This document shows positions 9,441-51,596 of a stretch of DNA of 64,000 nt, one piece after another. The position numbers and the translations under genes are program-made. Source of the DNA: a virus; IMG/VR virus record IMGVR_UViG_3300043570_002836, positions 32,512-96,511 of that record. One strand, written 5' to 3'. Each line of letters starts with the position of its first letter. The stretch's first letter is position 1. A model generated the notes under the pieces. That model ran no database searches. It had not been told where the DNA came from and saw nothing but the letters and a program-made list of their open reading frames with translations.

Positions 9441-11477
9441 ATGATTGAATCTGTAGAAAATAGTGGTAAAGGTAAAAAAGGTGATTCATCAACTCCTGTT
9501 TTAGATAACTTTAGTCGTGATTTAATTAAATTGGCTGAGGAGGGTAAATTAGACCCTGTAATCGGTCGTGATAGGGAGATTAATAGAATCGCCCAAATTT
9601 TATCAAGACGTAAGAAAAATAACCCAATTATTATTGGTGAACCAGGTTGTGGTAAAACTGCGATAGTTGAGGGATTGGCGATTAAAATTTACAACAACGA
9701 ATGTCCAAGAAATTTAATGGATAAAAAAATCGTATCGTTAGATATGACTTCAATTGTTGCAGGTACAAAGTATCGTGGTCAGTTCGAGGAAAGGATGAAA
9801 GTAATTATTGAAGAATTACAAACAAACCCAAACATTATTGTATTCATTGATGAGATACATACAATTGTTGGTGCTGGTAATTCATCAGGTTCAATGGATG
9901 CGTCTAATATCTTTAAACCCGCATTAGCAAGGGGTGAGATTCAATGTGTCGGAGCAACAACATTAGATGAATACCGTAAAAACTTTGAGAAAGACGGAGC
10001 GTTAGAAAGACGTTTCCAAAAAGTTATTGTTGACCCAGCGACCAAAGAAGAAACTTTTGAAATTCTTAAAAACGCTAAAGACAAATATGAAAATTACCAC
10101 AAAGTAGTTTATAGTGATGAGGTATTAACATTGTGTGTTGATTTGGCGGAAAGATATATTACGGATAGAGAATTTCCTGATAAGGCGTTTGACATCTTAG
10201 ATGAGGTTGGGGCTCGTAGTCAAGTTGAAGTTAAAATTCCTGATGAAATTGAGAAACTTAAATTAGAAGCTCTTGATATTAAACAAGAAAAATTGGATGT
10301 TGTAAAACGTCAAGATTACGAAGAGGCCGCTAATCTAAGAGATAAAGAAAAACGTATTCTAAACAAATTAGAAACTGAGAAAAAGAAATTTGAGGAAGAA
10401 CTAAATCAACAACGTAAAGAAATTAGTACTGAACTTGTTTATGACGTAGTTTCAAACATGACCAAAATTCCAATTTCTAAATTAAACGCTGATGAGACAA
10501 AATCATTAAGTGAAATGGAAGGTAATTTAAATGATAAAGTTATTGGTCAACCTGAAGCGGTTTCCAAAATTGCTAAATCAATTAGACGAAATCGTTTAGG
10601 GATTAAGGACCCGAACAAACCAATTGGCTCATTTATTTTCCTTGGTTCAACAGGTGTTGGTAAAACTCACTTAGCAAAACAATTAGCCAAACAAATTTTT
10701 GGTACTGAAGATGCGTTAATCAGAATTGATATGTCGGAATATCAAGAGAAACATAATATCTCAAGATTAATCGGTTCACCTCCAGGATATGTTGGTCACG
10801 AAGAAGGGGGACAATTAACCGAACAAGTTAAAAACAAACCTTACTCAGTGATTTTATTTGATGAGGTTGAGAAAGCGAACAAAGATATTTTCTCAACATT
10901 ACTTCAAGTACTAGATGATGGTCACTTGACAGATAGTTTAGGTAGAAAGATTAATTTCAAAAACTGTGTAATCATTATGACTTCAAATATTGGGGTTAGA
11001 AAATTACAAGATTTTGGAACAGGTATCGGATTTGGAACATCGGCAAAAACTTATGTTGAAGAAGAACAAAAACGTGATATGTTGAAAAAAGAACTTCAGA
11101 AGTTTTTCGCTCCTGAATTCTTAAACCGTATTGATGAGATTGTTGTATTCAAAAGTTTAAATCGTGAGGATGTTAAGAAAATAGTTCTATTGGAAGTTGA
11201 AAGATTACAAAAACGTTTAACAGGATTAAAATACAACTTCACATTTGACGAATCCGTTATTGATTTAATTTCTGAGGTTGGTTACGATGAAATATACGGT
11301 GCAAGACCTTTGAAAAGAGCTATCCAAGATAAGATTGAGGATTATATCTCAGAAGAAGTGTTGAAGGGTACTTTAGTGGAGAATGTTTTATACCGATTAA
11401 TTGTGATTGATAAAGAAGTTAAAATTGAAGAAGATAAACCTGTAAAAAAAGGTAGAAAGAAAAAGGGGGTTGAATAA
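9441..11477 (+). CDS. clpC: ClpC-type AAA+ unfoldase lacking the Clp N-domain
   Basis: A 678-residue Hsp100 ATPase. Two AAA+ modules are complete: the first has Walker A GEPGCGKT (about 66-73) and Walker B VFIDEIHT, the second has LGSTGVGKT and ILFDEVEK. Between them is a UVR-like segment (RQDYEEAANLRDKEKRI), which marks the ClpC rather than ClpA or ClpB lineage. A loop containing IGF (FGTGIGFGT) lies where ClpP-docking loops sit, so it may work with host ClpP; no clpP is visible here. The ~140-residue N-terminal adaptor-binding domain is missing, which should alter substrate choice. The gene stands alone on the plus strand and ends in its own terminator. Likely acquired from a Bacteroidota host. 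Confidence 0.93.
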   Translation: MIESVENSGKGKKGDSSTPVLDNFSRDLIKLAEEGKLDPVIGRDREINRIAQILSRRKKNNPIIIGEPGCGKTAIVEGLAIKIYNNECPRNLMDKKIVSLDMTSIVAGTKYRGQFEERMKVIIEELQTNPNIIVFIDEIHTIVGAGNSSGSMDASNIFKPALARGEIQCVGATTLDEYRKNFEKDGALERRFQKVIVDPATKEETFEILKNAKDKYENYHKVVYSDEVLTLCVDLAERYITDREFPDKAFDILDEVGARSQVEVKIPDEIEKLKLEALDIKQEKLDVVKRQDYEEAANLRDKEKRILNKLETEKKKFEEELNQQRKEISTELVYDVVSNMTKIPISKLNADETKSLSEMEGNLNDKVIGQPEAVSKIAKSIRRNRLGIKDPNKPIGSFIFLGSTGVGKTHLAKQLAKQIFGTEDALIRIDMSEYQEKHNISRLIGSPPGYVGHEEGGQLTEQVKNKPYSVILFDEVEKANKDIFSTLLQVLDDGHLTDSLGRKINFKNCVIIMTSNIGVRKLQDFGTGIGFGTSAKTYVEEEQKRDMLKKELQKFFAPEFLNRIDEIVVFKSLNREDVKKIVLLEVERLQKRLTGLKYNFTFDESVIDLISEVGYDEIYGARPLKRAIQDKIEDYISEEVLKGTLVENVLYRLIVIDKEVKIEEDKPVKKGRKKKGVE

Positions 11478-11499: not shown

Positions 11500-12315
11500 T
11501 TATCCGAGTATAGGGATATTTTTCTTTATAAACGGATAATAATTGTTACCCAAAGATTCAATCATTTCCTTACCCGTTTTAATTCCGTTATAAACGTCCT
11601 CAATAACAACGTATTCATTTTTTGTGTGGTAATCGTAATAACCAATAGCATAATTGATACAGGAGAAATCAAATTGTTTCTTTAATGCGTAAACATCCGT
11701 GTATGGGTGTGATTGGTACTCGTTACGACCCTCAAATCCTTCAGTCAATACTTTGTCACACTTGTCAAAGAAATCACCCTTACGGTCAAATAATTGAACT
11801 CCCATACAATACTCACTAACCATTAAGTTGCCAGGTGCGTCAAATTGGATTGCGTATCCAACATTTTCGAAAAACTCAGGGTCAGCATTTCTTGAACCGT
11901 GACAACCTGTTTCCTCAGATACGAAGAACGCAACTTTAAGATTTGGTAATTCTTTTAGTAATTCCAAACAAGCGAATACCCCACATTTATCATCACCACC
12001 AATACCTGTTGGATTACCTGAATTATTGTAAGCCTTTAACGCTGGTTTTAATTGACCTTGTTCGTTAGGTAAACTTTCTTCTCTAACGTTGATAGTGTCA
12101 ATATTATGAACCGTGTCAGTATGAGCAACAACACAAGGGAAATACTCAACCTCATCAGTTTGTTTCGTTACATAGATGTTATTCATATCATCTAAGTAAT
12201 ATTCGAAGTTGTTCTCAGTCAACCATTTTTCTAAGAAGTCAACCATTAGTCCTTCTTTATAAGTTTTTGTCGGTACTGATAAAACTTCTTTTAGTAAATT
12301 AAAATCTCTTTCCAT
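11500..12315 (-). CDS. M20/M28-like metallopeptidase or deacylase
   Basis: A 271-residue zinc hydrolase of the M20/M28 clan. Metal-site motifs are in order: VAHTDTV (His and Asp near residues 65-67), GIGGDDKCGV (bridging Asp near 103), SEETGCHGS (catalytic and metal Glu, about 133-134), FDAPG (Asp about 156) and a C-terminal His in GYYDYHTKNE. The lid/dimerisation domain of M20 enzymes is reduced, since the family is usually 370-450 residues. Likely an aminopeptidase of cytoplasmic peptides, and it would fit with ClpC-driven protein turnover next door, but the substrate is unknown. An alternative is an aminoacylase-type deacylase. Confidence 0.85.
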   Translation of the reverse strand: MERDFNLLKEVLSVPTKTYKEGLMVDFLEKWLTENNFEYYLDDMNNIYVTKQTDEVEYFPCVVAHTDTVHNIDTINVREESLPNEQGQLKPALKAYNNSGNPTGIGGDDKCGVFACLELLKELPNLKVAFFVSEETGCHGSRNADPEFFENVGYAIQFDAPGNLMVSEYCMGVQLFDRKGDFFDKCDKVLTEGFEGRNEYQSHPYTDVYALKKQFDFSCINYAIGYYDYHTKNEYVVIEDVYNGIKTGKEMIESLGNNYYPFIKKNIPILG

Positions 12316-12355: not shown

Positions 12356-13498
12356 TTAAAATTTATTATTGACCCCTAATAAATTTTTATTAAAGTTTGA
12401 CTCTAACTGTTCTCTAATAATTTTTCTGATTTTTTTATTTTCGAATAATTTATAATTCTCAATAAACGTTGGGAAATCCTCAAAACTAATTTTTCTAGCC
12501 TCCTGAGAACCTCCTGAATTTGAACGTACAATTATTGTTACACCATTAACAACATTAACATTTTTAATTGTGAACGAATATCCTTCCATTGTCGGGATTG
12601 GATACCAATTAACACCATTATGTTTAACATGGGGTAATTTTTTGATGTATTTCATAATTCGTTCATAACCTTCAAAATCAGCGTCACCATCTTCAAACGA
12701 TGATTCAACCTTTTCAAGAACTCTTTTTAAATAATAATTAACATCTTTATTATACGTATCTCTATCAAAATTTTGACATCCAACGTTCCAAACATCTTCA
12801 CTATAATTACCAAAACTTCTATCTAAATTAGTTATTAATTTTTCAATTAATTCTTTGATTGATAAATTTTGAGAATCTGTTTCTTCATATAACCTTACTA
12901 AATTAGAAGCGATTGTAACATATTCAGTTAATAATTCTTTTTCAACAATGTTATACGGTTCTAAGATATTAGATAATTCGCTTTTAACCAAGTCAACCAA
13001 CCCATTTTCCATACATTCATTATACCTATTTTGATATTCGGTAATCATATTACTAACGTCATAACCCCACTCTTTATCATGGTCAAGTAAAAAGTGAGAA
13101 ATTCCACCATCGTCATCAATACCTTCAACATTAGGACTGTATTTAATAAGTTCTTTTAAAATACCCCTATTCTCCTCATCAAATTGACCAAAGTGATATC
13201 CTTCTTTAAAATCATCTTCAGCACTATCCCAACTAAGATATTCTCGTGGTTCACGATAATAATAACTATGAATGTTTAGCAACTCGATGGCGTCCTCCAT
13301 ATCATACTCACTTAAATCATCAATTAGTTTAAGGAATTCTCTTTCCTCAAATGTCAATTTAATAAATGTTTTACCTGGACTATTTTGGTTAAAGTGTTTA
13401 ACTTCCATATTATCACCAACTTCGACATCATTCTCGTATTCACCGTCAACAATTGATTTCAATACTATATATTCGTCAGAAAATTCACTTTCATCCAT
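12356..13498 (-). CDS. Hypothetical acidic protein with C-terminal tag-like helix
   Basis: A 380-residue acidic protein without a recognised domain. The middle is helical and rich in Tyr, Asn, Asp and Glu. The C-terminus has the segment LFENKKIRKIIREQLES, which resembles the N-terminal amphipathic tag of other proteins here (basic amphipathic helix with I-R-E and Q-L-E), only placed at the end. A TATTTATATAA element lies about 20 bases before the start codon, consistent with late expression. It is separated from the tmRNA by about 100 bases with divergent orientation. Confidence 0.6.
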   Translation of the reverse strand: MDESEFSDEYIVLKSIVDGEYENDVEVGDNMEVKHFNQNSPGKTFIKLTFEEREFLKLIDDLSEYDMEDAIELLNIHSYYYREPREYLSWDSAEDDFKEGYHFGQFDEENRGILKELIKYSPNVEGIDDDGGISHFLLDHDKEWGYDVSNMITEYQNRYNECMENGLVDLVKSELSNILEPYNIVEKELLTEYVTIASNLVRLYEETDSQNLSIKELIEKLITNLDRSFGNYSEDVWNVGCQNFDRDTYNKDVNYYLKRVLEKVESSFEDGDADFEGYERIMKYIKKLPHVKHNGVNWYPIPTMEGYSFTIKNVNVVNGVTIIVRSNSGGSQEARKISFEDFPTFIENYKLFENKKIRKIIREQLESNFNKNLLGVNNKF

Positions 13499-13534: not shown

Positions 13535-13564
13535 TTGGTCTTTTCATTTTTTCCCCTATATTTG
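13535..13564 (+). promoter_or_regulatory. Bacteroidota-type promoter for the tmRNA
   Basis: TTG at 13535-13537, a 19-base spacer, then TATATTTG at 13557-13564, matching the TTG / TAnnTTTG pattern of the Bacteroidota primary sigma factor. Transcription should start some 25 bases before the mature tmRNA 5' end. Confidence 0.75.
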
Positions 13565-13596: not shown

Positions 13597-13980
13597 GGGG
13601 ATAACTTGGAATTGACTGGCATTGTTAATTATTCGGGGCACGCAGTGAGAAGATTCCTATCACTTAAATCTATGGTGTCAAATTTCAAACGGAGACGTTT
13701 TAGACAAAATGGAAGTTATCGGATTAATCCGTACTTCTGAAGTTACTGTAGCCTAATAGCAAACGGAAACGCGGGTCGGTGAGCATATAACCAAGGAACA
13801 GAAGCTCTTACAAAGACGGAAAAACGATTGAGTCCGTAAATCGAATTGTCCATTGGTTGTTAGTTTACGATGGTGAAGAACAAACTTACTATTTTTGGAA
13901 CATTAGAAAATGTTATCCTAAGCGTGTAGTCCTTAGTCTTTAAGGTGTACAAGACGCGGGTTCGACTCCCGCTATCTCCA
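13597..13980 (+). ncRNA. ssrA: tmRNA (SsrA), with an unusual 21-residue tag
   Basis: A one-piece tmRNA of about 384 nt. The 5' end GGGGATA pairs with TATCTCC at 13973-13979 to form the acceptor stem, and the T arm (GCGGG TTCGACT CCCGC, 13956-13972) is exact. A GGGGATAACTTGGAATTGACTGG opening is the tmRNA counterpart of the usual GGGGxxGAAAxGGxTTCGACxGG. CCA is not encoded. The tag frame starts at GGA (13691), the usual Bacteroidota resume residue, and reads GDVLDKM...RTSEVTVA (21 residues) to TAA TAG at 13754-13759; tandem stops support this frame. The tag is longer than typical and ends in VTVA instead of ALAA. It rescues stalled ribosomes and marks the peptide; degradation could involve the phage ClpC. 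Confidence 0.93.
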
Positions 13981-15725: not shown

Positions 15726-16610
15726 TATAAAAAAACGTTGAGATTACACGTATTATTGAGAACCTTTGGAAGGATTATTGTTTCCCTTCGTATCCACTTT
15801 CTTTTGAAAAGTATTCCTCAGTGTCGGTTTTTTAGGTGAACCACTCCTTGAGACATCAACTACTCTCTCATTACTTAACTCTCTTCGAGAATGCCTTCCC
15901 GACTAATCCTTGCGAGATTAGAGGTATTTGGTAAGAATATAGGTCAACTTGCGGTATTCCTATGCAATGAACAACTCATTACTATGTAGACACCTTTCGT
16001 TGATATCTGACGGACACTTTTGCTTTATAGTTATAAATGTTACTTCATTTCCTTAAAGTTTTTTGTGTTGTGGATGAATCAAAGCAGTGGTCCGTCTTTC
16101 AGATTCGTCGTCTTTTGAACAACGAAATACCAAACTACTCTGTGAAGTATCCCTACCTCAATATTTTAAGATTACTTCGAGATTATTCTTTTGGTAAAGA
16201 ATTATCAAGGAAAATTTCAGCACCACCTGTTTGTTTTCATACCTTTCGGTTTTAAGCCACCTTTTATAATGGAATACGCAATAATAAAATTGGATAATCT
16301 TATTTTTCACAAAATTCCTACGAGTTATTCCTATTAGAGTTCCCTCCTCAATCTGATGACCCACATCACCAAATCATATAACCACTTTCTCTACATCGTT
16401 GACCTCGATACTAAAGGTTATACGGTATCCCGCTTGTGTACTCGACCTCGGTTTCCCAAGACGCAAATCATTTACACTCATGACTCACTTTATCCTACTT
16501 TCGTAGTTTATTTTATGGACTATACACGGCCCAATATCTTTATCAGTTTCATTACTTACTCCTGAACGGATAATCAATTTTTCAAAGAACGTCTCGGACA
16601 TTTCCGATTT
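15726..16610 (-). ncRNA. Giant structured noncoding RNA (GOLLD/ROOL-like candidate)
   Basis: A stretch of nearly 900 bases without a plausible gene but with dense RNA structure on the minus strand. Visible stem-loops include CTAC-GAAA-GTAG (16495-16506), CTTGG-GAAA-CCGAG (16446-16460), ACC-GAAA-GGT (16241-16250) and CTAATC-TCGCAAG-GATTAG (15903-15921); three have GNRA tetraloops. Two strong host-type promoters lie just upstream (16617-16758) and a terminator just beyond a tRNA-like end (15602). Phage-borne RNAs of this size next to tRNAs are known as the GOLLD and ROOL classes; size, setting and a tRNA-like 3' end fit best with GOLLD, but I cannot match a consensus by eye. RNase P RNA was considered and not supported. 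Confidence 0.65.
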
Positions 16611-18845: not shown

Positions 18846-18872
18846 TAAAAAAAAGTCCCGAAGGACTTCTTT
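18846..18872 (-). terminator. Terminator of the RNA-ligase operon
   Basis: On the minus strand AAGTCC-TTCG-GGACTT is followed by a run of T. It overlaps the end of the RNA ligase gene. Confidence 0.8.
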
Positions 18873-19906
18873 TATTTCTCGTTAAGTAAGAATTGATTAC
18901 TAATGGATTTAAAACTTATTGTTCTATCGTAAGAACGAACAACAACACCTTCTCGTCCAAAATTAGAATTTAAGTTAGAAGGACTTTCGGCGTATTCTAA
19001 CATATTGTCAATTGAATTAGGTAAATCAAAATCAAAATCTAATATTGGCACTGTAGTTAATCCAAATTTTTGAGTTATCTCAGTAAATTGTAAGAATGGG
19101 ATGTTTTCTTGTGTATCAATATTGAACCCGTTGAAAAATCTTACAGTCTGTCCTTTAATTTTGTAAGGATTACCTTGAACACCTTCACCAATTAATTCAC
19201 CTTGTAAACATACGTTAAATCCTAATGTTTTTAACTTATCCTCAAGTTCTAACTCTCTAGCAACTTTCCAAAATGTATTATCATCAGTTTCAAGTAATTC
19301 TAAGTTACGGGAACATACACTAAACACCTCATCTTTCACGTAGAATGTTGCTGAAGAACCATCTAACTTTTCAGTCACGTAAAACTTCATCCCCAATTTA
19401 TTTTGGGTTCTGTATTTTTCGTAATCAGACGCCAAATTTTGAACTCTTTCTTCATCAGTCTTACGGATGAAAGATGGGAACAAACCTTTAACTTTACCAG
19501 CCAAAGATGCTGGAATTGGTGGTTCGTATTTAACAATGTCCAACATTTCAGTAACATCTAACCCTTCAAATGGGGTTACGTTAATGTTTGCATCAGGTGG
19601 GTTTAATACTACAATAGGTAAAATCAAACCTTGAGATACTTGACCTCGTAATCTTATAGTTTTCAAACGGAAACCTTCTTGGTCACCCATTTTTTTGAAT
19701 GAAGTTTTTCTTAAAAATTCAAATTCTTCACGAATTGGTAAGAACGAATCTACTTCACAGTAAACAATTAAATCACCTACTTTGTGATTCACATCTTTAG
19801 CAACAACAACTTTCCATCCGTCAATTGTTGCAAGTTCGATTTTATCGGCCCCCTCAATTGGTTGGATGTTACTTATTTTTCTAACGGTTGCTAATTTTCT
19901 TTCCAT
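18872..19906 (-). CDS. RNA ligase (DRB0094/Rnl5-like)
   Basis: A 344-residue nucleotidyltransferase ligase. An N-terminal OB-like domain (residues 1-110, ending RLRGQVSQGLILPI) precedes the catalytic core: nucleotidyl-accepting Lys180 in motif I (TEKLDGSS), motif IIIa-like LQGELIGEG, motif IV REGVVVRS and motif V ISFKS near the C-terminus. The N-terminal OB arrangement is that of the Deinococcus DRB0094 ligase group. It seals RNA, probably nicked tRNA, which suits the nearby tRNA array and cREC protein. The start overlaps the preceding small gene by 26 bases. Confidence 0.88.
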   Translation of the reverse strand: MERKLATVRKISNIQPIEGADKIELATIDGWKVVVAKDVNHKVGDLIVYCEVDSFLPIREEFEFLRKTSFKKMGDQEGFRLKTIRLRGQVSQGLILPIVVLNPPDANINVTPFEGLDVTEMLDIVKYEPPIPASLAGKVKGLFPSFIRKTDEERVQNLASDYEKYRTQNKLGMKFYVTEKLDGSSATFYVKDEVFSVCSRNLELLETDDNTFWKVARELELEDKLKTLGFNVCLQGELIGEGVQGNPYKIKGQTVRFFNGFNIDTQENIPFLQFTEITQKFGLTTVPILDFDFDLPNSIDNMLEYAESPSNLNSNFGREGVVVRSYDRTISFKSISNQFLLNEK

Positions 19907-23932: not shown

Positions 23933-23942
23933 ATTTTATTTG

Positions 23943-24015
23943 AGCGGGTGGAGGTAATCGAAACCTCGTCCTTAGATTGGAAGTCTAATATAATAAGCCA
24001 CTATACGACACCCGC
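23943..24015 (-). tRNA. tRNA-Gly (UCC)
   Basis: Acceptor GCGGGTG with CACCCGC, anticodon arm TTAGA CTTCCAA TCTAA. Complete cloverleaf. Confidence 0.93.
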
Positions 24016-24101
24016 AAATTTGGGTAGAATCAGACGCGTTCTGTCTACCGAGACCTCATCGTTAATGAATTACTTCATCAGAGCGTACTGAGACACTATT
24101 G

Positions 24102-24181
24102 TGAACCTGGAGGGAGTCGAACCCTCAACCATATGGACTTCGGCTTAAACGAAGCGTGTTTACCAATTTCACCACAGGTCC
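24102..24181 (-). tRNA. tRNA-Leu (UAA)
   Basis: Acceptor GGACCTG with CAGGTTC, anticodon arm CTTCG TTTAAGC CGAAG, T arm GAGGG TTCGACT CCCTC. Variable arm is short for a class II tRNA. Confidence 0.9.
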
Positions 24182-24187
24182 ATTTTG

Positions 24188-24260
24188 TAGTCCTATCAGG
24201 ATTCGAACCTGAATCAAAGAGGTAGAAGCTCTTTATGTTAATCCCTTACACCATAGAACC
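24188..24260 (-). tRNA. tRNA-Arg (UCU)
   Basis: Acceptor GGTTCTA with TAGGACT (G-U pairs), anticodon arm AAGAG CTTCTAC CTCTT, T arm TCAGG TTCGAAT CCTGA. Confidence 0.9.
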
Positions 24261-24269
24261 AAATTGTTG

Positions 24270-24341
24270 AGGGCTGGGGGAATTTCGAAATCCCGACCTT
24301 TCGATTAACAGTCGAAGGCTCTTCCTCTGAGCTACCAACCC
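24270..24341 (-). tRNA. tRNA-Asn (GUU)
   Basis: Acceptor GGGTTGG with CCAGCCC, anticodon arm TTCGA CTGTTAA TCGAA. Complete cloverleaf. Confidence 0.92.
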
Positions 24342-24355
24342 TTATATTTGTTTTG

Positions 24356-24428
24356 AGGTCTCTAACGGATTCGAACCGTTATCCCTGGGTTACAAAGCCA
24401 GAATAATAAGCCATTATACTAAGAGACC
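24356..24428 (-). tRNA. tRNA-Thr (UGU)
   Basis: Acceptor GGTCTCT with AGAGACC, T arm AACGG TTCGAAT CCGTT. The anticodon arm CTGGC TTTGTAA CCCAG has one C-C mismatch at the loop-closing pair. Confidence 0.85.
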
Positions 24429-24647
24429 AATTTGTGATTACTCCTTGGGTGTTTCATCACATTTACGTGAATGGAGTGGCCAAACTCACTAACAACACGG
24501 ACATTAGTTTTTAACAAAATAACTATCGTCAAAAATCGTCAGTTTTTATCAACCAAAACTGAATAAACGGACTGTCGTATTTGTTAACACTATTTAAGTG
24601 CGTGTTACCTACGTTCACAATCAGAACCCTACTTGTTTACACTCCCG
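24429..24647 (-). other. Intergenic spacer between tRNA-Thr and tRNA-Asp
   Basis: About 219 bases with no gene. It contains inverted repeats such as GTCAGTTTTTATCAACCAAAAC-type half-sites and GTTAACA/TGTTACC-like segments, which could be processing stems. Nothing else is recognised. Confidence 0.35.
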
Positions 24648-24719
24648 CGGTCTATGAGAGAATCGAACTCTCAGCACATCCGTGACAGGGATGTATGTTA
24701 ACCATTACACTAATAGACC
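24648..24719 (-). tRNA. tRNA-Asp (GUC)
   Basis: Acceptor GGTCTAT with ATAGACC, anticodon arm CATCC CTGTCAC GGATG, discriminator G as usual for Asp. Confidence 0.93.
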
Positions 24720-24724
24720 TTTAG

Positions 24725-24795
24725 TAGCGGATTCAGGACTCGAACCTGGCCTCGGGGTTATGAGCCCCACGTGCTACCATTTACACTAAACCGCG
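24725..24795 (-). tRNA. tRNA-fMet-like initiator (CAU)
   Basis: The acceptor CGCGGTT with ATCCGCT leaves position 1 (C) opposite T at 72 unpaired, and the anticodon stem TGGGG CTCATAA CCCCG carries consecutive G-C pairs. An unpaired 1-72 position and a G-C-rich anticodon stem are hallmarks of initiator tRNA. T arm CCAGG TTCGAGT CCTGA has one end mismatch. Confidence 0.75.
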
Positions 24796-24801
24796 ATGTG
24801 T

Positions 24802-24871
24802 ATTCCCACGGAGAATCGAACTCCGATTTTATGGATGAAAACCATAGGTCCTAACCGTTAGACGATGGGAA
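24802..24871 (-). tRNA. tRNA-Glu (UUC)
   Basis: Acceptor TTCCCAT with GTGGGAA, anticodon arm TATGG TTTTCAT CCATA, T arm CGGAG TTCGATT CTCCG. Confidence 0.88.
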
Positions 24872-24886
24872 CGTTTAATTGTCTTA

Positions 24887-24917
24887 CAAATCTAAGTATT
24901 TACTTTTGATTATACAA
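24887..24917 (-). promoter_or_regulatory. Host-type promoter inside the tRNA array
   Basis: On the minus strand TTG (24915-24917), 20-base spacer, TAGATTTG (24887-24894), followed by TAAGAC. It should drive tRNA-Glu and the tRNAs downstream. Confidence 0.75.
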
Positions 24918-24939
24918 GACCTTTTTAATTTTTTTTCTG

Positions 24940-25013
24940 TGGTCCAGATAGGATTCGAACCTATGACCTTCGCTTTATGAGAGCGCCGCTCTAACCACCT
25001 GAGCTACAGAACC
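24940..25013 (-). tRNA. tRNA-Met (CAU), elongator-like
   Basis: Acceptor GGTTCTG with CTGGACC (one mismatch), D arm GTAGCTCAGGTGGTTAGAGC, anticodon loop CTCATAA, T arm ATAGG TTCGAAT CCTAT. CAU also occurs in lysidine-modified tRNA-Ile2, so elongator Met is the preferred but not certain reading. Confidence 0.8.
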
Positions 25014-25018
25014 TTATG

Positions 25019-25091
25019 TACCCCCAACAGGATTCGAACCTGTAAAAAATAGTTCCTAAAACTATCGTGTCTACCTTTCCACCATAGGGGC
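25019..25091 (-). tRNA. tRNA-Leu (UAG), short variable loop
   Basis: Acceptor GCCCCTA with TGGGGGT, anticodon arm ATAGT TTTAGGA ACTAT, T arm ACAGG TTCGAAT CCTGT. Only about five T residues lie between the anticodon and T stems, so the long variable arm normal for leucine tRNA is missing. Confidence 0.82.
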
Positions 25092-25141
25092 GTTTACTTC
25101 TATTCCAATACGTCAATGAACTCTTGTTCTGTTTTGTCTGA

Positions 25142-25172
25142 CAAATCTAATACTTTTATTTTGATTTGCCAA
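25142..25172 (-). promoter_or_regulatory. Host-type promoter upstream of tRNA-Leu(UAG)
   Basis: On the minus strand TTG (25170-25172), 20-base spacer, TAGATTTG (25142-25149). Same layout as the promoter at 24.9 kb. Confidence 0.75.
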
Positions 25173-25185
25173 ACTTAGGTCATAA

Positions 25186-25218
25186 AAAAAACCCCTCTCT
25201 TTTGGAGAAGGGTTTCAT
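25186..25218 (-). terminator. Terminator downstream of the DOT1-like methyltransferase
   Basis: On the minus strand AACCCTTCTCC and GGAGAG-type halves pair around AAAA, followed by GGGTTTTTTTT. It separates the methyltransferase gene from the next tRNA promoter. The remaining bases up to 25381 show no gene. Confidence 0.65.
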
Positions 25219-25381
25219 TTAAATTTTATCTTAATGAATTAACACACCTACTCCGATACACAAGGATTGTCCCCCTCCGTTCTCGCATTTAAAAGTATGT
25301 TATTCAAATTTTGCATTACTATGTCGTTTTTTATTAAATATATTGTACTTCTTGAAAAGTTCAATAGTTTATGAAAAAAAA

Positions 25382-25939
25382 TTATTTTTTTATGAATACG
25401 TATATAGTATTTGTACCATAATTAGTTGATGAGGTAAACCCATCTTTAAAATATTCTTTATTTGTCCAAGATTCTTTGAATGATTTTCTAGAGATAACTA
25501 AACAATCTGTAGGTATCATATTATAAATTTCGGCATCAATATTATTGGGGAATAACGTATTATCCATGTAGATTACTGTGGCATCAGAAATATCACAATT
25601 TAAAATATTGTCATTAATAAATGAAATATTATCATTTTTGATATTATGAGTTTCCATTAACTTTAATGATGTTTCGTATCGTTCACGACTATACTCAATA
25701 CCACAAGATTTTTTGGGGTTATATTCCACCCCAATATGGATTACTATTTTCCCAATACCTGAACCTAAGTCATAAAATACCGTATCATCATTAAAATGTG
25801 TTTTGTATTTGTTAACTATTTCGTTAATTGAATCGTAACCTGTTTCTCCATAACCTTCTGACCCGACAATATTAACATCAAATTCTGTTTTATTGTGGAT
25901 GTTATATGAATTAAAATTATATAATGTTTCTATCGACAT
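25382..25939 (-). CDS. DOT1-like SAM-dependent methyltransferase
   Basis: A 185-residue methyltransferase starting MSIETLYNFNSY. SAM-binding motif I is VFYDLGSGIGKI (about residues 55-66), followed by an acidic motif II GIEYSRERYETS and a motif IV-like VIYMDNTLFPNN. The DLGSGxGK plus E-x-S-x-x-R-x-E arrangement is that of DOT1-like proteins in the phage and bacterial branch. The substrate is unknown. A longer frame exists upstream to 25984, but that extension runs into tRNA-Tyr, so the start at 25939 is preferred. It probably shares a transcript with the tRNA upstream. Confidence 0.8.
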   Translation of the reverse strand: MSIETLYNFNSYNIHNKTEFDVNIVGSEGYGETGYDSINEIVNKYKTHFNDDTVFYDLGSGIGKIVIHIGVEYNPKKSCGIEYSRERYETSLKLMETHNIKNDNISFINDNILNCDISDATVIYMDNTLFPNNIDAEIYNMIPTDCLVISRKSFKESWTNKEYFKDGFTSSTNYGTNTIYVFIKK

Positions 25940-25953
25940 ATTGGTAAATTTTG

Positions 25954-26034
25954 TGGGAGTGGAGGGATTCGAACCCCCACGCAATAAAGACCTGATTTAC
26001 AGTCAGGCGAGCCAGCCAGTTGCTCAACACTCCC
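25954..26034 (-). tRNA. tRNA-Tyr (GUA), copy 1
   Basis: Acceptor GGGAGTG with CACTCCC, anticodon arm CCTGA CTGTAAA TCAGG, class II variable arm, T arm GGGGG TTCGAAT CCCTC. Nearly identical to the copy at 26.6 kb. Confidence 0.93.
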
Positions 26035-26073
26035 AAGTTAGGAAAGAGGAAGATGGTTTGTACGTCTTTTATT

Positions 26074-26568
26074 TTAGACCTCCAAATTTTTATTAAATAA
26101 GACATCACCTTCTTTCATATATTCTTTTTTCACTTTTTCAATCAAGGATTTCAAAGCGGAGTTACCTTGTGTTGTTTTTTTAAGGTCTTCAAGTTTAGGA
26201 CTACCTTTAAAACTAATCTTAGTATAAGACGTTCCGTTTTCTTTACCCCATACAATGTTAGTTAAACACAACTTGTCAATTTTCTTTTGCTCCTTTTCTT
26301 TTTCTTTCTCGAATAGAATATCATCAATAACTGAATCAAGTGTTCGTGAATAACCAAACTCTTTTGGTAAAGTTTTACAGAAGTTATAAACCTCATCTAA
26401 AACTTTAGACATACCTTCATTTAAAGGTTGGATATTTGTATTACCACCGTGTCCGTCATTTTGAGCGTATGCCGTTTTTTTACCGTTTATAAAAACATCA
26501 GCCATGAAACAAGTAGTTTCTTCGCTAAACATTTTGTTAATCTTTACATTTTTAAGTTCTATTTTCAT
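26074..26568 (-). CDS. Hypothetical protein
   Basis: A 164-residue protein starting MKIELKNVKINKMFSEETTC. The first third looks beta-rich (FMADVFINGKKTAYAQNDG), followed by helices rich in Lys and Glu (EKEKEKEQKKIDK, about 89-101). No family recognised. It lies between the two tRNA-Tyr copies and has its own host-type promoter (TAGATTTG at 26589-26596), so it is likely expressed early. Confidence 0.6.
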   Translation of the reverse strand: MKIELKNVKINKMFSEETTCFMADVFINGKKTAYAQNDGHGGNTNIQPLNEGMSKVLDEVYNFCKTLPKEFGYSRTLDSVIDDILFEKEKEKEQKKIDKLCLTNIVWGKENGTSYTKISFKGSPKLEDLKKTTQGNSALKSLIEKVKKEYMKEGDVLFNKNLEV

Positions 26569-26588
26569 ATTGTTTTTTTTTTGTCTTA

Positions 26589-26619
26589 CAAATCTACAAT
26601 TTTAATTTAGTTCTCACAA
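26589..26619 (-). promoter_or_regulatory. Host-type promoter of the 164-residue gene
   Basis: On the minus strand TTG (26617-26619), 20-base spacer, TAGATTTG (26589-26596), then TAAGAC. It ends about 20 bases before the start codon. Confidence 0.8.
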
Positions 26620-26644
26620 TAGTTTTTTTATTTTTTTTTTTAAG

Positions 26645-26725
26645 TGGGAGTGGAGGGATTCGAACCCCCACGCAATAAAGACCTGATTTACAGTCAGGCG
26701 AGCCAGCCAATTGCTCAACACTCCC
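26645..26725 (-). tRNA. tRNA-Tyr (GUA), copy 2
   Basis: Identical to copy 1 except for one substitution in the D-loop region. Flanking bases are also shared on one side, indicating a recent duplication. Confidence 0.93.
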
Positions 26726-26797
26726 AAAACATATCGTAGATTGTCCTTCACAATTTAACGGCGGGTTTGAACTTAATCAACTCTCCTACGATATTTG

Positions 26798-26869
26798 CAC
26801 ACCACCAAGGACTCGAACCCTGACCAAATGGGTTGGAACCATTTATGCTAGCCATTACACCAATGATGC
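26798..26869 (-). tRNA. tRNA-Trp (CCA)
   Basis: Acceptor GCATCAT with GTGGTGT (G-U pairs), anticodon arm AATGG TTCCAAC CCATT, discriminator G. T arm CAGGG TTCGAGT CCTTG. Confidence 0.9.
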
Positions 26870-26893
26870 GAATAATGAAACTTTGTTTCATTG

Positions 26894-26967
26894 AGGACAG
26901 AGAGAGGTTCGAACTCTCGAATAATGGATTTGCAGTCCACCCCCTTAGACCACTCAGGCATCTGTCC
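26894..26967 (-). tRNA. tRNA-Cys (GCA)
   Basis: Acceptor GGACAGA with TCTGTCC, anticodon arm GTGGA CTGCAAA TCCAT, T arm GAGAG TTCGAAC CTCTC, discriminator U as usual for Cys. Its first 14 bases overlap the end of the adjoining protein gene. Confidence 0.92.
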
Positions 26968-27361
26968 TTGAATTTACCATTTTAACTAAGACATCAACTA
27001 ATATTACATTGTCGATACCCTCAATTAAGATTGGATTTTTTGTTTTCCCGTTTTCGATTAAATTACCTACTCCCATGTAAAACTTACAATCAGTACTAAT
27101 ATTTGTTTTGTACATAATTGCGTTATACGCTTTTTGTTTTAATCTATCACTTCTAAATGTTGTTGTCAAATCTATGAAGATATCAACCCCGTCAATTGTT
27201 GTTTTAAAATCAAAATCAATAATTTGTTTTTTACCTAATGAGTTAATGAAAAATGGTTTTTCTTTATTTAACATTTTTTTTAACCCCGTTAATAATTCAA
27301 ACTTGTCTTCTAATGACTTTCCATTCAGACATTTTTCTTGGTTAGTTTTACTGTGTGTCAT
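26954..27361 (-). CDS. Hypothetical protein, possible PD-(D/E)xK nuclease fold
   Basis: A 135-residue protein starting MTHSKTNQEKCLNGKSLEDK. The arrangement IIDFDFKTTIDGVDIFIDLTTTF (about residues 46-68), with an acidic strand, a hairpin and a second acidic strand, resembles the core of restriction-like nucleases, but the key lysine is replaced by Thr (DLTTTF). The C-terminus (NSRTDA) overlaps the 5' end of tRNA-Cys by 14 bases, so one transcript must serve both. Function uncertain. Confidence 0.55.
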   Translation of the reverse strand: MTHSKTNQEKCLNGKSLEDKFELLTGLKKMLNKEKPFFINSLGKKQIIDFDFKTTIDGVDIFIDLTTTFRSDRLKQKAYNAIMYKTNISTDCKFYMGVGNLIENGKTKNPILIEGIDNVILVDVLVKMVNSRTDA

Positions 27362-27482
27362 AGTCGTAATGTTTTTAAATATTAAGTCGCGGGGAATCCA
27401 TCTGCCGCTTATTACTAGAATCTTGTGGTTTACTTACTATAGTTCATACCGTTACCACTAGGAAACCCAACTTAATATTTTG

Positions 27483-27554
27483 TAGCCCCTGTAGGACTCG
27501 AACCTACACTATTTTGTATGTAAAACAAACACTTTTCCTTTAAGTTAAGGAGCT
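27483..27554 (-). tRNA. tRNA-Val (UAC)
   Basis: Acceptor AGCTCCT with AGGGGCT, anticodon arm TTTGT TTTACAT ACAAA, T arm GTAGG TTCGAGT CCTAC. Confidence 0.9.
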
Positions 27555-27562
27555 AATTATTG

Positions 27563-27637
27563 TGTCCCCGACAGGAATCGAACCTGTGACCCTTCCATTA
27601 AAAGTGGAATGCTCTAAACCAACTGAGCTACGAGGAC
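27563..27637 (-). tRNA. tRNA-Lys (UUU)
   Basis: Acceptor GTCCTCG with CGGGGAC, anticodon arm TTCCA CTTTTAA TGGAA, T arm ACAGG TTCGATT CCTGT. Confidence 0.93.
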
Positions 27638-27648
27638 ATTTTTTTAAG

Positions 27649-27722
27649 TCGGAATGGTAGGGTTCGAACCTACGACCTTTCACGTATCAGGCGAATGCTC
27701 TAACCAACTGAGCTACATTCCG
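27649..27722 (-). tRNA. tRNA-Ile (GAU)
   Basis: Acceptor CGGAATG with CATTCCG, anticodon arm TTCGC CTGATAC GTGAA, T arm GTAGG TTCGAAC CCTAC. Confidence 0.93.
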
Positions 27723-27732
27723 TTATTTTTGG

Positions 27733-27804
27733 TCGGGGTAGCAGGTGTCGAACCTGCCGCCTCTTGGTCCCAAACCAAGCGTCTCTCCCCAAGACTATAC
27801 CCCG
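27733..27804 (-). tRNA. tRNA-Pro (UGG)
   Basis: Acceptor CGGGGTA with TACCCCG, anticodon arm CTTGG TTTGGGA CCAAG, T arm GCAGG TTCGACA CCTGC. Its 5' end abuts the stop codon of the next protein gene. Confidence 0.93.
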
Positions 27805-28200
27805 TTATTTTGTTTTTAAGATATCCCCCAACTTCTTTACACGATTTTTGAAAGTTGTGTTGTAGAACTTTTCAAAATCTTGTTTAAGGTAGTTGAATCT
27901 GATATCACACCCATTTTTTAATTCTTTGTATGTGGAACCCCAATTCATCCCATCATTTACCATATCAATAACCAAGATTCCTACAGATAAGTTAGTAACA
28001 TTCCCAACCCATATTGATATCTTCAATTCAGGGTTATATAAACCTCTACCATAAGATTCACCTCTTGGGTCAATAACAAAACCTCTTTTTTTGAACTCAT
28101 CTAAAATGAAAGTTACCATTTCAGGTTTTAAACCTGATTGAATAGATTTAATCTCGTTATTTAATCCTTGAACTTTAGTTATTTTGTCTGTAGTTGTCAT
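27805..28200 (-). CDS. Hypothetical protein in the tRNA array
   Basis: A 131-residue protein starting MTTTDKITKVQGLNNEIKSI. It has a helical N-terminus, a central beta region (GRGLYNPELKISIWVGNVTNLSV) and a basic helical C-terminus (KNRVKKLGDILKTK). No family recognised. It stops exactly at the 5' end of tRNA-Pro and has its own host-type promoter at 28.2 kb. Confidence 0.6.
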   Translation of the reverse strand: MTTTDKITKVQGLNNEIKSIQSGLKPEMVTFILDEFKKRGFVIDPRGESYGRGLYNPELKISIWVGNVTNLSVGILVIDMVNDGMNWGSTYKELKNGCDIRFNYLKQDFEKFYNTTFKNRVKKLGDILKTK

Positions 28201-28228
28201 ATGTATGGGTTTATCGTTGTTTGTCTTA

Positions 28229-28259
28229 CAAATCTACGAAATCATTTCCATTCTCACAA
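28229..28259 (-). promoter_or_regulatory. Host-type promoter of the 131-residue gene and the tRNAs after it
   Basis: On the minus strand TTG (28257-28259), 20-base spacer, TAGATTTG (28229-28236), then TAAGAC. Very similar to the promoter at 26.6 kb, including TTGTGAGAA at the -33 side. Confidence 0.8.
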
Positions 28260-28280
28260 CACTTTTGTTATTTTTTTTTG

Positions 28281-28350
28281 TACCGAGTATGGGTTTCGAA
28301 CCCACTTGACCATCCTTATGAGAGATAGTTCTTTTCCTTTAAGCCTCGGT
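28281..28350 (-). tRNA. tRNA with CAU anticodon (Met or Ile2)
   Basis: Acceptor ACCGAGG with ACTCGGT (one mismatch), anticodon arm TATCT CTCATAA GGATG, T arm GTGGG TTCGAAA CCCAT. With an initiator-like and an elongator-like CAU tRNA already present, this one may be tRNA-Ile2 reading AUA. Confidence 0.82.
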
Positions 28351-28357
28351 GTTTCTG

Positions 28358-28445
28358 CGGAAGATGTAGGGTTCGAACCTACGCATCATATTTCAGACCT
28401 ACTTGTTTAGCAAACAAGCCTCTTTACCGATTTGAGTAATCTTCC
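28358..28445 (-). tRNA. tRNA-Ser (GCU)
   Basis: Acceptor GGAAGAT with ATCTTCC, anticodon arm CTTGT TTGCTAA ACAAG, long variable arm, T arm GTAGG TTCGAAC CCTAC, discriminator G. Confidence 0.93.
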
Positions 28446-28448
28446 AAA

Positions 28449-28472
28449 TTATACCGACCTAGCTCGGTATCA
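28449..28472. other. Short palindrome between tRNA-Ser and tRNA-Arg
   Basis: ATACCGA-CCTAGC-TCGGTAT, a 7-bp perfect stem. Probably an RNA-processing or stability stem in the tRNA precursor. Confidence 0.45.
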
Positions 28473-28485
28473 CACATCGGATACG

Positions 28486-28557
28486 TAGTCCCCCAAGGAC
28501 TCGAACCTTGACAATAACATCCGTAGTGTTAAGTGCTATCCATTACACCAAGGAACC
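28486..28557 (-). tRNA. tRNA-Arg (ACG)
   Basis: Acceptor GGTTCCT with GGGGACT (G-U pairs), anticodon arm TAACA CTACGGA TGTTA, T arm CAAGG TTCGAGT CCTTG. An A34 anticodon would need TadA editing to inosine. Confidence 0.9.
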
Positions 28558-28559
28558 AA

Positions 28560-28584
28560 ATTATTAGGTCAGGACCTAATAATC
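28560..28584. other. Strong palindrome between tRNA-Arg and tRNA-His
   Basis: ATTATTAGGTC and GACCTAATAAT form a near-perfect 10-11 bp stem with a tiny loop. A second half-site (ATTATTAGGTT) follows a few bases later. Likely a processing or transcript-stability structure. Confidence 0.45.
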
Positions 28585-28612
28585 ACTCATTATTAGGTTT
28601 TAACCTTATATT

Positions 28613-28688
28613 GGGAGTATAGTGAGATTTGAACTCACCCTATTATCACCACAAAATAACGTGCTCAACCACTGACACTATATACTCC
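28613..28688 (-). tRNA. tRNA-His (GUG)
   Basis: Acceptor GGAGTAT with ATACTCC, anticodon arm TTATT TTGTGGT GATAA, discriminator C as required for His. The extra G at -1 is not encoded. Confidence 0.88.
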
Positions 28689-28766
28689 ATAAAAACCCCA
28701 CTTCATCAGCTTAACGGACTGACTGCCATATCGGAGGTGGGGGTATCCTGTTAATTCAGGACCTCG

Positions 28767-28839
28767 TGGGACAGGAGAGAATCGAACTCTCATTGCTTGT
28801 TCTTCAAACAAGTGCCTTGACCAACTTGGCAACTGACCC
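28767..28839 (-). tRNA. tRNA-Phe (GAA)
   Basis: Acceptor GGGTCAG with CTGTCCC (one mismatch), anticodon arm CTTGT TTGAAGA ACAAG, T arm GAGAG TTCGATT CTCTC. Confidence 0.9.
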
Positions 28840-28848
28840 AATTTATTG

Positions 28849-28921
28849 TTGTCCCACAAGGGTTCGAACCTCGACTCTTCTGTACCAAAAACAGACGTGT
28901 TGCCAATTACACTATAGGACA
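28849..28921 (-). tRNA. tRNA-Gln (UUG)
   Basis: Acceptor TGTCCTA with TGGGACA, anticodon arm TCTGT TTTTGGT ACAGA, T arm CGAGG TTCGAAC CCTTG. Confidence 0.9.
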
Positions 28922-46480: not shown

Positions 46481-47005
46481 TTATAGTAAAAATTTAAGTA
46501 TTTTTTCTTTGATACCTGATTGTTTAATCCCTTCTTTCATTTTTTTAGTATGAACGAAGTTAGGTAATTTACTTAAATCCAAATCATCAATAGCTACCCA
46601 ATGTGTTACTTCAGGGTGGTTATTTAACCAAGTATTGATTTCTGACACTCTGTTACCTTCTAAATCAGACATGCGTTTAAGTACGGTGTCAGGTGTAACA
46701 TCAATAGGTGACTTAATCACACCGTATTCTTTAAACATATGTTGTAAGTCTACCAAGGTACAATGTAGTTTCCAATCTGAGGATACAACAATCTCAGCAT
46801 CAGTTAATTCCAATATTTCATTTAGAACTTTAACCGCTTTGGAGTTGAAGTTATCCATCTTGATATGTGCGGGAATTTTTGGGTCGTTAACATAACCCTG
46901 ACTTTCAGGATTGTTTAACTTCCATTTTTTAATCTTTTTCATGCGTCCACCCCACTCGGTAGATAAACACATAACACCATCGTTATCTAAAAATATTACT
47001 TTCAT
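46481..47005 (-). CDS. HAD-superfamily phosphatase (Swiss-army-knife RNA-repair type)
   Basis: A 174-residue HAD-fold protein. Motif I is FLDNDGVMC (Asp7, Asp9), motif II is IVVSSDWK (about residues 72-79), and the late acidic motif is WVAIDDLDL (about 139-147). This layout is that of the HAD domain found in multi-enzyme RNA-repair proteins. It may dephosphorylate RNA ends or nucleotides. The unusual DxN in place of DxD-x-T is noted. Gene 3 bases after the papain-like gene. Confidence 0.8.
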   Translation of the reverse strand: MKVIFLDNDGVMCLSTEWGGRMKKIKKWKLNNPESQGYVNDPKIPAHIKMDNFNSKAVKVLNEILELTDAEIVVSSDWKLHCTLVDLQHMFKEYGVIKSPIDVTPDTVLKRMSDLEGNRVSEINTWLNNHPEVTHWVAIDDLDLSKLPNFVHTKKMKEGIKQSGIKEKILKFLL

Positions 47006-50469: not shown

Positions 50470-51143
50470 CCGTTGTCTTTTGACGCATACTTAATACCCA
50501 TAATGGTTCCAACAATTGAGAACGCGTTTGTAAGTAAGATTCCAAACATATTTGCCCAAGCGGCACTAATAACTTGTGTGTCTTTACCCATAGTAAGGGT
50601 TATGATATAAACTAAGGTTGTTACTAAACCAACACCAATTATCATCCATAAAGCAACCTTAACAATAATTGAGATTAATTCCGTTTGATTTCTTTTTTGG
50701 ATAAAATCTAAGTCATTTTCAGCATTTTCTTTAGCGGTTTCTGCGGTCAGTCTGGCCTGTTCAGATTTAACCATTTCATGTTTTAATTCCTCAGTTAAAC
50801 GGATATTTTCTAATTTCCACTCATTAAGTTCTCGATTTTGAACTTCGTAGGTTAATTTATCTTGACCAACTTCATCTAATGTTTGATTTAATTCGCTTAA
50901 AATTCGACTATTCTCATCATTTAAATCACTTAATTCTTTATTTTGAGATTGAATTTTTTTGGTGATTTCAAGACGTTTTTTTCTTTTATCACTGTCTTTG
51001 GTTTCACATTCCTTTAGATAATTTTTAAAGTCATCGTCATCTTCACTATCAATAAGTTTAGTAATGTTACCTTCAAGACCCACACGTTTGGTAACGTATA
51101 GGTCCATCAATAATTTTTTAGTATTACTATCTATTTTAATCAT
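50466..51143 (-). CDS. Coiled-coil membrane protein downstream of the two-component system
   Basis: A 225-residue protein. Residues ~50-155 form a long charged coiled coil (KKIQSQNKELSDLNDENSRI, then EELKHEMVKSEQARLTAETA). Two membrane helices follow (ISIIVKVALWMIIGVGLVTT, about 157-177; AAWANMFGILLTNAFSIVGT, about 194-214). It overlaps the response-regulator gene by 4 bases, so it is expressed with the kinase and regulator. It could be the membrane output or partner of the pathway. Confidence 0.7.
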   Translation of the reverse strand: MIKIDSNTKKLLMDLYVTKRVGLEGNITKLIDSEDDDDFKNYLKECETKDSDKRKKRLEITKKIQSQNKELSDLNDENSRILSELNQTLDEVGQDKLTYEVQNRELNEWKLENIRLTEELKHEMVKSEQARLTAETAKENAENDLDFIQKRNQTELISIIVKVALWMIIGVGLVTTLVYIITLTMGKDTQVISAAWANMFGILLTNAFSIVGTIMGIKYASKDNG

Positions 51144-51577
51144 TTGTAAACTTTAAATGGTAATGTTCTGTTTTTATAACCTTCATAATCTTTTCTGAAC
51201 TCTTCTAAACGAGGTTCAATGTCATCAGATTTAATAATCCAAAATTGTGCACCCGCTTGAACCGCTTTTGCTTGTTCTTCGGCTTCGTTTGAAGATGATA
51301 TAATCCCAATTACAACGTGATTACCAAACTCAAAATTTATTTTTCTGATTAACTCAATACCATCAAAAGAACTACCAATAATGTTTAAATCAACAAATAC
51401 ACATTCTGGTTTATCATAATTGTCCCCTTCTTGGAACCATTTTTCAAATAGTTTTGCGGCTTCATCAGAACTATTTAATGCGTTTAAAGATAAACTTATG
51501 TCAAGTAATGAACACGCATCTTCAAATACTAAATGGAATAAATCCTCATCATCCACTAATAAAATTGAATCAATCAT
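51140..51577 (-). CDS. Response regulator, stand-alone receiver domain
   Basis: A 145-residue CheY-like receiver. Key residues are present: acidic pocket Asp9/Asp10 (LLVDDED), phospho-acceptor Asp63 (VFVDLNI), a Ser switch (IISSSNE, about 93-98) and Lys116 (WIIKSDD). There is no DNA-binding or enzymatic output domain. It lies 19 bases after the histidine kinase gene and overlaps the coiled-coil membrane gene by 4 bases. It should receive phosphate from the kinase and pass the signal by protein-protein contact. Confidence 0.92.
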   Translation of the reverse strand: MIDSILLVDDEDLFHLVFEDACSLLDISLSLNALNSSDEAAKLFEKWFQEGDNYDKPECVFVDLNIIGSSFDGIELIRKINFEFGNHVVIGIISSSNEAEEQAKAVQAGAQFWIIKSDDIEPRLEEFRKDYEGYKNRTLPFKVYK

Positions 51578-51596
51578 TTTTTTTTCGTTTTTTATA

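What the first reader, a model, noticed from the sequence alone, without database searches (positions are those of the whole stretch)
13597..13980. Phage tmRNA with an unusually long tag ending VTVA
The tag frame has a Bacteroidota-type resume codon (GGA) and tandem stops, but encodes 21 residues (GDVLDKM...RTSEVTVA) in place of a short tag ending ALAA. Loss of the usual C-terminal degron could spare tagged phage proteins from host ClpXP or redirect them to another protease.
Basis: partly seen in the sequence, partly recalled or inferred. Interest (0 to 1): 0.72.

Follow-up and report, generated by a model that had tools for sequence, protein, structure and literature searches.

The report
Phage tmRNA with private degradation tag
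A large family of viruses of Bacteroidota bacteria makes its own ribosome-rescue RNA that adds a conserved 21-residue tag unlike the host's 9-residue one, and the RNA gene almost always lies beside a virus-encoded protein-unfolding machine, so the virus may send rescued proteins to its own degradation system.

Summary
The tmRNA is real (Rfam RF00023, 70.9 bits; ARAGORN misses it) and has the reported 21-codon tag, GDVLDKMEVIGLIRTSEVTVA. It is not a one-off. All 43 tmRNAs read from records sharing a neighbouring gene, and about 150 loci found by tag DNA, carry a 21-22 residue tag of consensus GNVLNKMxxxGLIRxxEVxVA. Gly11 and Leu12 are invariant, and conserved residues are kept through synonymous codons. 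Bacteroidota tmRNAs resume at the same place but encode 9-10 residues ending ALAA/AMAA; none of 395 Bacteroidota genomes has the long tag. A Bacteroidota-type promoter supports that host.

The key neighbour is a phage ClpC-type unfoldase without the N domain, usually 2-5 kb upstream on the same strand, present in 78 of 80 records picked by tag alone. All 81 ClpCs examined keep a ClpP-docking tripeptide. ClpP occurs in 15 and SmpB in 4 of 36 related records.

Best explanation: the phage rescues ribosomes and marks the products with a private degron for its own ClpC, working with host or phage ClpP. RNA, tag and linkage are shown; recognition by ClpC is inferred. Closest precedent: the Mycoplasma tag-Lon switch. 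"Sparing from degradation" is not excluded but less likely.

The parts
13597..13980 (+). phage tmRNA (ssrA), CCA not encoded
   Evidence: RF00023, 70.9 bits; acceptor and T stems covary across 49 relatives, G3.U70 alanine identity pair (G13599.U13977) kept in 43 of 49
13691..13759 (+). tag reading frame GDVLDKMEVIGLIRTSEVTVA (13691-13753) plus stops TAA TAG
   Evidence: resume codon aligned with Rfam and with Bacteroidota tmRNAs; same tag type in 43 of 43 relatives
13644..13671 (+). candidate pseudoknot 1 (13644-13648 with 13660-13664; 13651-13655 with 13667-13671)
   Evidence: read from the sequence; not tested by covariation
13557..13564 (+). TATATTTG, matching the Bacteroidota -7 promoter element TAnnTTTG
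   Evidence: motif within 60 nt upstream of the tmRNA in 40 of 49 relatives against 4.8% background
9441..11477 (+). ClpC-type AAA+ unfoldase without N domain, [IV]GF ClpP-docking loop present
   Evidence: phrog_4871, Pfam AAA_2, AAA_lid_9, ClpB_D2-small, S. aureus ClpC 739 bits, docking loop in 81 of 81 relatives
11500..12315 (-). M20-like peptidase, conserved between clpC and tmRNA
   Evidence: Pfam PF01546 27.1 bits over cut-off 24.6, phrog_4191, synteny
12356..13498 (-). unknown fast-evolving protein next to the tmRNA in most relatives; link to the system uncertain
   Evidence: 17-29% identity among homologues, position, no fold match

Best explanation
This is a phage-encoded, alanine-accepting tmRNA. 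During infection it would enter stalled ribosomes (with host SmpB, or phage SmpB in some relatives) and append a 21-residue phage-specific tag in place of the host's 9-residue ALAA tag. The tag is a private degron: its C-terminal end, mostly [VTA]VA, plus a conserved Gly-Leu-centred N-terminal part, is recognised by the phage's own N-domain-less ClpC. ClpC unfolds the tagged chains and feeds them to ClpP (host ClpP, or phage ClpP in a subset) through its [IV]GF loop. The phage would thereby control both ribosome rescue and the fate of the rescued proteins. Shown: the RNA, the tag and its conservation, absence of the tag from Bacteroidota genomes searched, the ClpC linkage and intact ClpC/ClpP motifs. 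Inferred: charging, tagging, recognition by ClpC, degradation.
For: All 43 tmRNAs read from records holding the ClpC gene or the window have a 21-22 residue tag. Peptide-level conservation: Leu12 invariant with five codons, Arg14 as AGA and CGT/CGC, pN/pS 0.55 against 0.85 and 0.96. Host tags are 9-10 residues ending ALAA/AMAA; 0 of 395 Bacteroidota genomes have the long tag, control positive in 6 of 7 phage records. Tag-only scan: clpC upstream in the held flank for 55 of 80 loci and in the record for 22 of 24 others checked. ClpP-docking tripeptide kept in 81 of 81 phage ClpCs, other motifs in 80-81. ClpP in 15 of 36 records and SmpB in 4 of 36. Tag distance tracks ClpC best (r 0.62), and TerL adds nothing given ClpC.
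Against: No biochemical data. All members belong to one phage lineage with strong synteny, so linkage may be inherited rather than functional. A phage with ClpC 94% identical to the window's carries the other tag subtype, so fine pairing is loose. ClpP is not found in several records of 274-304 kb, so host ClpP would have to be used. The partial correlations may reflect ClpC being the best phylogenetic clock.
Confidence: 0.55

Rival explanations
1. The tag still works through host ClpXP (or a host ClpA/ClpC): a terminal -VA is tolerated, and the extra N-terminal residues serve another purpose such as spacing or adaptor binding. Phage ClpC does something unrelated.
For: Terminal Ala in 80 of 84 tags; LVA and AAV variants of the E. 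coli tag are used as degradation tags (PMC9382460).
Against: A subgroup ends VTI, others VKA, VEA or VGA, so an LAA-like end is not maintained; 12 further residues are conserved; ClpC is nearly always present.
Confidence: 0.22
2. The tag is protective: the phage rescues ribosomes but spares the products from host proteolysis.
For: The host ALAA end is absent in every tag read.
Against: A merely inert tag need not be conserved in sequence and length; a protease partner is linked. No direct evidence.
Confidence: 0.1
3. The tag is a targeting or functional peptide (a structured element directing proteins to a phage compartment or partner), not mainly a degron.
For: The N-terminal half has an amphipathic pattern closed by invariant Gly-Leu (inference).
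Against: ClpC linkage; no similar C-terminus was found among 3,659 ORFs in related loci.
Confidence: 0.08
4. The tag frame is unconstrained drift or the gene is a decayed tmRNA.
For: ARAGORN misses it and reports a tmRNA in only 7 of 43; the single-sequence folding energy is unremarkable (z -1.31).
Against: Constant length, frame-specific conservation, alanine-identity stem, promoter.
Confidence: 0.03

Closest known systems
Mycoplasma/Mesoplasma extended ssrA tag read by Lon (Gur and Sauer 2008; Ge and Karzai 2009, known here through PMC3985003 and PMC9382460)
   Same: An extended tmRNA tag without ALAA and a switch to a different protease.
   Different: That is cellular, ends AFA/NYAFA and is read by Lon after ClpXP loss; here it is phage-borne, ends mostly -VA, and the linked enzyme is ClpC.
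Bacteroidota tmRNA, tag GENNYALAA and similar
   Same: Gly resume codon at the same position, one-piece tmRNA, similar bases before the resume codon.
   Different: 9-10 residues ending ALAA/AMAA against 21-22 residues ending mostly VA.
Other phage tmRNAs (Streptomyces phages, Bacillus phage G, mycobacteriophages, Melnitz, huge phages)
   Same: Phage-borne ssrA; SmpB is also known in huge phages (PMC7162821, PMC4131195, PMC9004378).
   Different: The Streptomyces phage tags listed, such as ANSKFAFALAA, end ALAA; no linked ClpC is described in the passages read.
Bacterial ClpC (Hsp100)
   Same: D1, short M domain and D2; 739 bits to S. aureus ClpC over residues 13-650.
   Different: No N domain; best bacterial relative found only 54% identical.
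Moraphages (large aquatic Bacteroidota phages, PMC12619734)
   Same: Clp ATPase and a putative peptidase are core genes; Bacteroidota hosts predicted; some encode DnaK.
   Different: tmRNA is not mentioned there; membership of the window in that group was not tested.

Membership tests
tmRNA (RF00023) | covariance-model score over the gathering cut-off | tested here: met
   70.9 against 47 bits
tmRNA (RF00023) | tRNA-like domain with G3.U70 and T arm | tested here: met
   present in the window and in 43 of 49 relatives, with stem covariation
tmRNA (RF00023) | resume codon followed by an open tag frame with stop | tested here: met
tmRNA (RF00023) | alanylation, SmpB binding and tagging | not testable with these tools
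   needs an experiment
canonical ssrA tag | short tag ending ALAA or close variant | tested here: not met
   21 residues ending VTVA; relatives mostly -VA, some VTI
Mollicute-type Lon tag | extended tag ending AFA, read by Lon | tested here: not met
   length similar, but no AFA end in any tag read; Lon dependence not testable here
ClpC/Hsp100 unfoldase | two AAA+ modules with Walker A/B, pore loops and arginine finger | tested here: met
   80-81 of 81 proteins
ClpC/Hsp100 unfoldase | ClpP-docking [ILV]GF/L loop | tested here: met
   81 of 81: VGF 46, IGF 34, MGF 1
ClpC/Hsp100 unfoldase | N-terminal adaptor-binding domain | tested here: not met
   homology starts at ClpC residue 155 and no N-domain Pfam hit; hence 'ClpC-type', not a full ClpC

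The most novel reading that the evidence does not exclude
A phage lineage carries a closed tag-and-destroy circuit: its own tmRNA with a two-part degron, its own ClpC without the adaptor domain, and in many members its own ClpP or SmpB. It would replace the host's ssrA-ClpXP pathway in infected cells and control which stalled products are recycled.
Probability: 0.45. Interest if true: 0.86.

Novelty: new variant of a known kind. Interest (0 to 1): 0.76.

Why it matters
The C-terminal ALAA tag is described as highly conserved across bacteria except Mycoplasma (PMC3985003). Here a common phage lineage has swapped it for a different conserved peptide and keeps an unfoldase beside it. If the pair works as proposed, it would be the first phage-encoded degron-protease pairing for trans-translation that I know of, would help explain why large phages carry tmRNA and Clp genes, and would offer an orthogonal degradation tag for laboratory use. 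It may have been overlooked because ARAGORN, used in phage surveys (PMC7162821, PMC9004378), reports only 7 of 43 of these RNAs.

Tried and rejected
Exact tag DNA from the window in viral contigs: no hit. blastn of the tmRNA to cultured phages gave only short matches at the 3' end, and tblastn of a consensus tag to cultured phages gave nothing (short query, weak negative). The tag is not borrowed from phage protein C-termini. Phage records with ClpC-like proteins at 45-58% identity: no tmRNA in five of seven searched; two huge phages have long but different tags. The 380-residue neighbour gave a confident model (pLDDT 86.5) with no significant match in PDB or BFVD, so no adaptor role can be claimed. 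Single-sequence RNA folding is uninformative (z -1.31). The sigma-70 promoter scan is at chance level. Shuffling tag columns across sequences is not a useful null, because it keeps third-position variability: it gives 0.57 against the observed 0.55. Strict tag-ClpC co-evolution is rejected: tag subtype differs between phages whose ClpC is 94% identical. The association of an IGF loop with ClpP carriage (Fisher p 3e-4) is confounded by phylogeny and not relied on. In the first alignment one row (L054) was taken at wrong coordinates; it was not used for the tag statistics.

Full report
Observation. The window holds a genuine tmRNA at 13597-13980 (Rfam RF00023, 70.9 bits, E 1.4e-25). ARAGORN does not list it. 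The acceptor stem GGGGATA/TATCTCC contains the G3.U70 pair of alanine acceptors, the T arm is intact, P2 (13638-13643 with 13922-13927) pairs, and a candidate pseudoknot 1 precedes the resume codon. The tag frame runs from GGA 13691 to GCC 13753, followed by TAA TAG: GDVLDKMEVIGLIRTSEVTVA.

Is it more than one odd sequence? Two kb upstream lies 9441-11477 (+), a ClpC-type double AAA+ protein. Its relatives in IMG/VR gave 80 loci. An Rfam search of 50 of those whole records found a tmRNA in 42; most of the other eight stop within about 3 kb of clpC. With the window, 43 tmRNAs were read, and all 43 carry a tag of 21 (37) or 22 (6) residues, such as GNVLNKMETLGLLRESEVTVA, GNVLDKMATIGLIREEAAVVA and GNTFAKMATLGLTREASVVAA. 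In the 21-mers position 11 is always Gly and position 12 always Leu; Lys6 and Arg14 are nearly constant.

Selection on the peptide. Over 84 distinct 21-codon DNA versions, pN/pS is 0.55 in the tag frame against 0.85 and 0.96 in the other two frames. The invariant Leu12 uses five codons, and Arg14 uses AGA as well as CGT/CGC, so the peptide and not just the RNA is kept. The last residue is Ala in 80 of 84. The residues before it vary (TVA, VVA, AVA, VAA, VGA, VKA, VEA, NVA, EVA), and one subgroup ends VTI.

Contrast with hosts. tmRNAs from Bacteroidota genomes resume with Gly at the same place (nt 95-99) but encode GENNYALAA, GENNFALAA, GERQFALAA, GESYNYAMAA and the like, 9-10 residues. A search with a consensus tag found nothing in 395 Bacteroidota genomes; the same query rings in 6 of 7 phage records. 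The tmRNA has TAnnTTTG, the Bacteroidota -7 element (own knowledge), within 60 nt upstream in 40 of 49 cases against 4.8% background. Together these support Bacteroidota hosts, though no host was shown directly.

Linkage to ClpC. In 55, clpC lies upstream on the same strand within the stored DNA, 2.0-5.3 kb away. Of 24 others searched as whole records, 22 hold it, and the last lies on a record already known to have it (that of L071). The two without it are an 8-kb fragment and a 52-kb record whose tag locus held only 209 bases upstream. A second pattern gave 70 loci, all with tags of 21 residues, and clpC upstream wherever at least 3.4 kb was held. The scan patterns fix the core motif, so there only the length, the C-terminus and the ClpC neighbour are informative. 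Conversely, 51 of 53 clpC loci with at least 5.5 kb held downstream have a tmRNA. One host-type tag pattern was found in only 6 viral contigs, none with this ClpC; these look like bacterial ssrA genes.

State of the machine. All 81 phage ClpCs keep a [IVM]GF ClpP-docking tripeptide; Walker, pore-loop and arginine-finger motifs are found in 80-81. The N domain is absent: homology starts at ClpC residue 155. ClpP is encoded in 15 of 36 related records, with the expected Ser, His and Asp in the eight read; SmpB in 4 of 36. Neither is found in G000, a 96.5-kb record that may be a fragment. Between clpC and the tmRNA nearly every relative has an M20-like peptidase and a fast-evolving unknown protein.

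Co-variation. Tag distance correlates with ClpC distance (r 0.62) more than with TerL (0.46), the phrog_36119 neighbour (0.52), M20 (0.35) or the tmRNA's own flanks (0.51-0.53). With ClpC cut to 170 columns r stays at 0.60, and the partial correlation with TerL given ClpC is -0.05. This is suggestive only: ClpC may simply be the best clock. Against tight pairing, a relative with ClpC 94% identical to the window's has the other tag subtype inside otherwise near-identical tmRNA ends.

Mechanism. The best-supported reading is a phage-run tag-and-destroy pathway: phage tmRNA rescues ribosomes, its tag is a private degron, and phage ClpC delivers the products to ClpP. RNA, tag, conservation and linkage are shown here. 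Charging, tagging, recognition and degradation are inferred. Alternatives (host ClpXP still reads -VA; the tag stabilises; the tag targets) are listed with tests.

Known relatives. The working parallel is the Mycoplasma extended tag read by Lon, where ALAA is replaced by AFA in the absence of ClpXP (PMC3985003; PMC9382460). Phage tmRNAs, and SmpB in huge phages, are known (PMC7162821; PMC4131195; PMC9004378). A 2025 tmRNA database paper gives 10 residues as the commonest tag length and says nothing of this class in the passages read (PMC11915505). Moraphages, large phages with predicted Bacteroidota hosts, list a Clp ATPase and a putative peptidase as core genes, and the paper does not mention tmRNA (PMC12619734). 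I found no description of this tag or its pairing with ClpC in the held library, which is not all literature.

Limits. One phage lineage with strong synteny, mostly fragmentary records, no cultured member found, no experiment.

Noticed in passing
window 15735-16142 (-); records G003, G004, G005, G007, G010, G024, G025, G027, G030, G031, G034, G039, G044: GOLLD RNA (RF02032, 315 bits in the window) lies 0.1-3.1 kb downstream of the phage tmRNA on the opposite strand in 14 of the 15 records where both positions were listed (G049 is the exception); SmpB, where present, can lie in the same interval (G004) or directly next to GOLLD (G469, G470). A link between GOLLD, whose function is unknown, and ribosome rescue deserves a look.
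   Followed up: partly
L434 (LR756504.1), L433 and L435 (LR756508.1): Two other huge phages with ClpC-like proteins (45-49% identity) have tmRNAs with long but different tags, about 24 residues ending EMAVAA and 36 residues ending KPAAV; LR756508.1 also has a second, 112-nt hit that looks like a tRNA-like domain only.
   Followed up: partly
window 12356-13498 (-): Unknown protein next to the tmRNA in most relatives, 17-29% identical between homologues, with a confident predicted structure and no significant fold match in PDB or viral models.
   Followed up: partly
window 48294-50165 (-): Phage-encoded DnaK (Pfam HSP70, 841 bits), a further protein-quality-control gene in the same phage.
   Followed up: no
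window 23942-28921 (-): Array of 23 tRNA genes covering most amino acids, including two tRNA-Tyr.
   Followed up: no
window 18872-19906 (-) and 46481-47005 (-): RNA ligase (phrog_968) and a HAD domain of RNA-repair proteins (PF18143): a possible RNA-repair set in a phage with many tRNAs.
   Followed up: no
window 51140-53720 (-): GAF/PAS histidine-kinase-like protein followed by a response-regulator domain protein, an unusual two-component pair for a phage.
   Followed up: no
L046, L055, L056, L069, L072, between clpC and the tmRNA position: The M20-like peptidase is inverted and only 45-49% identical to the window's, yet keeps its place between clpC and the tmRNA position, as if replaced in situ.
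   Followed up: no
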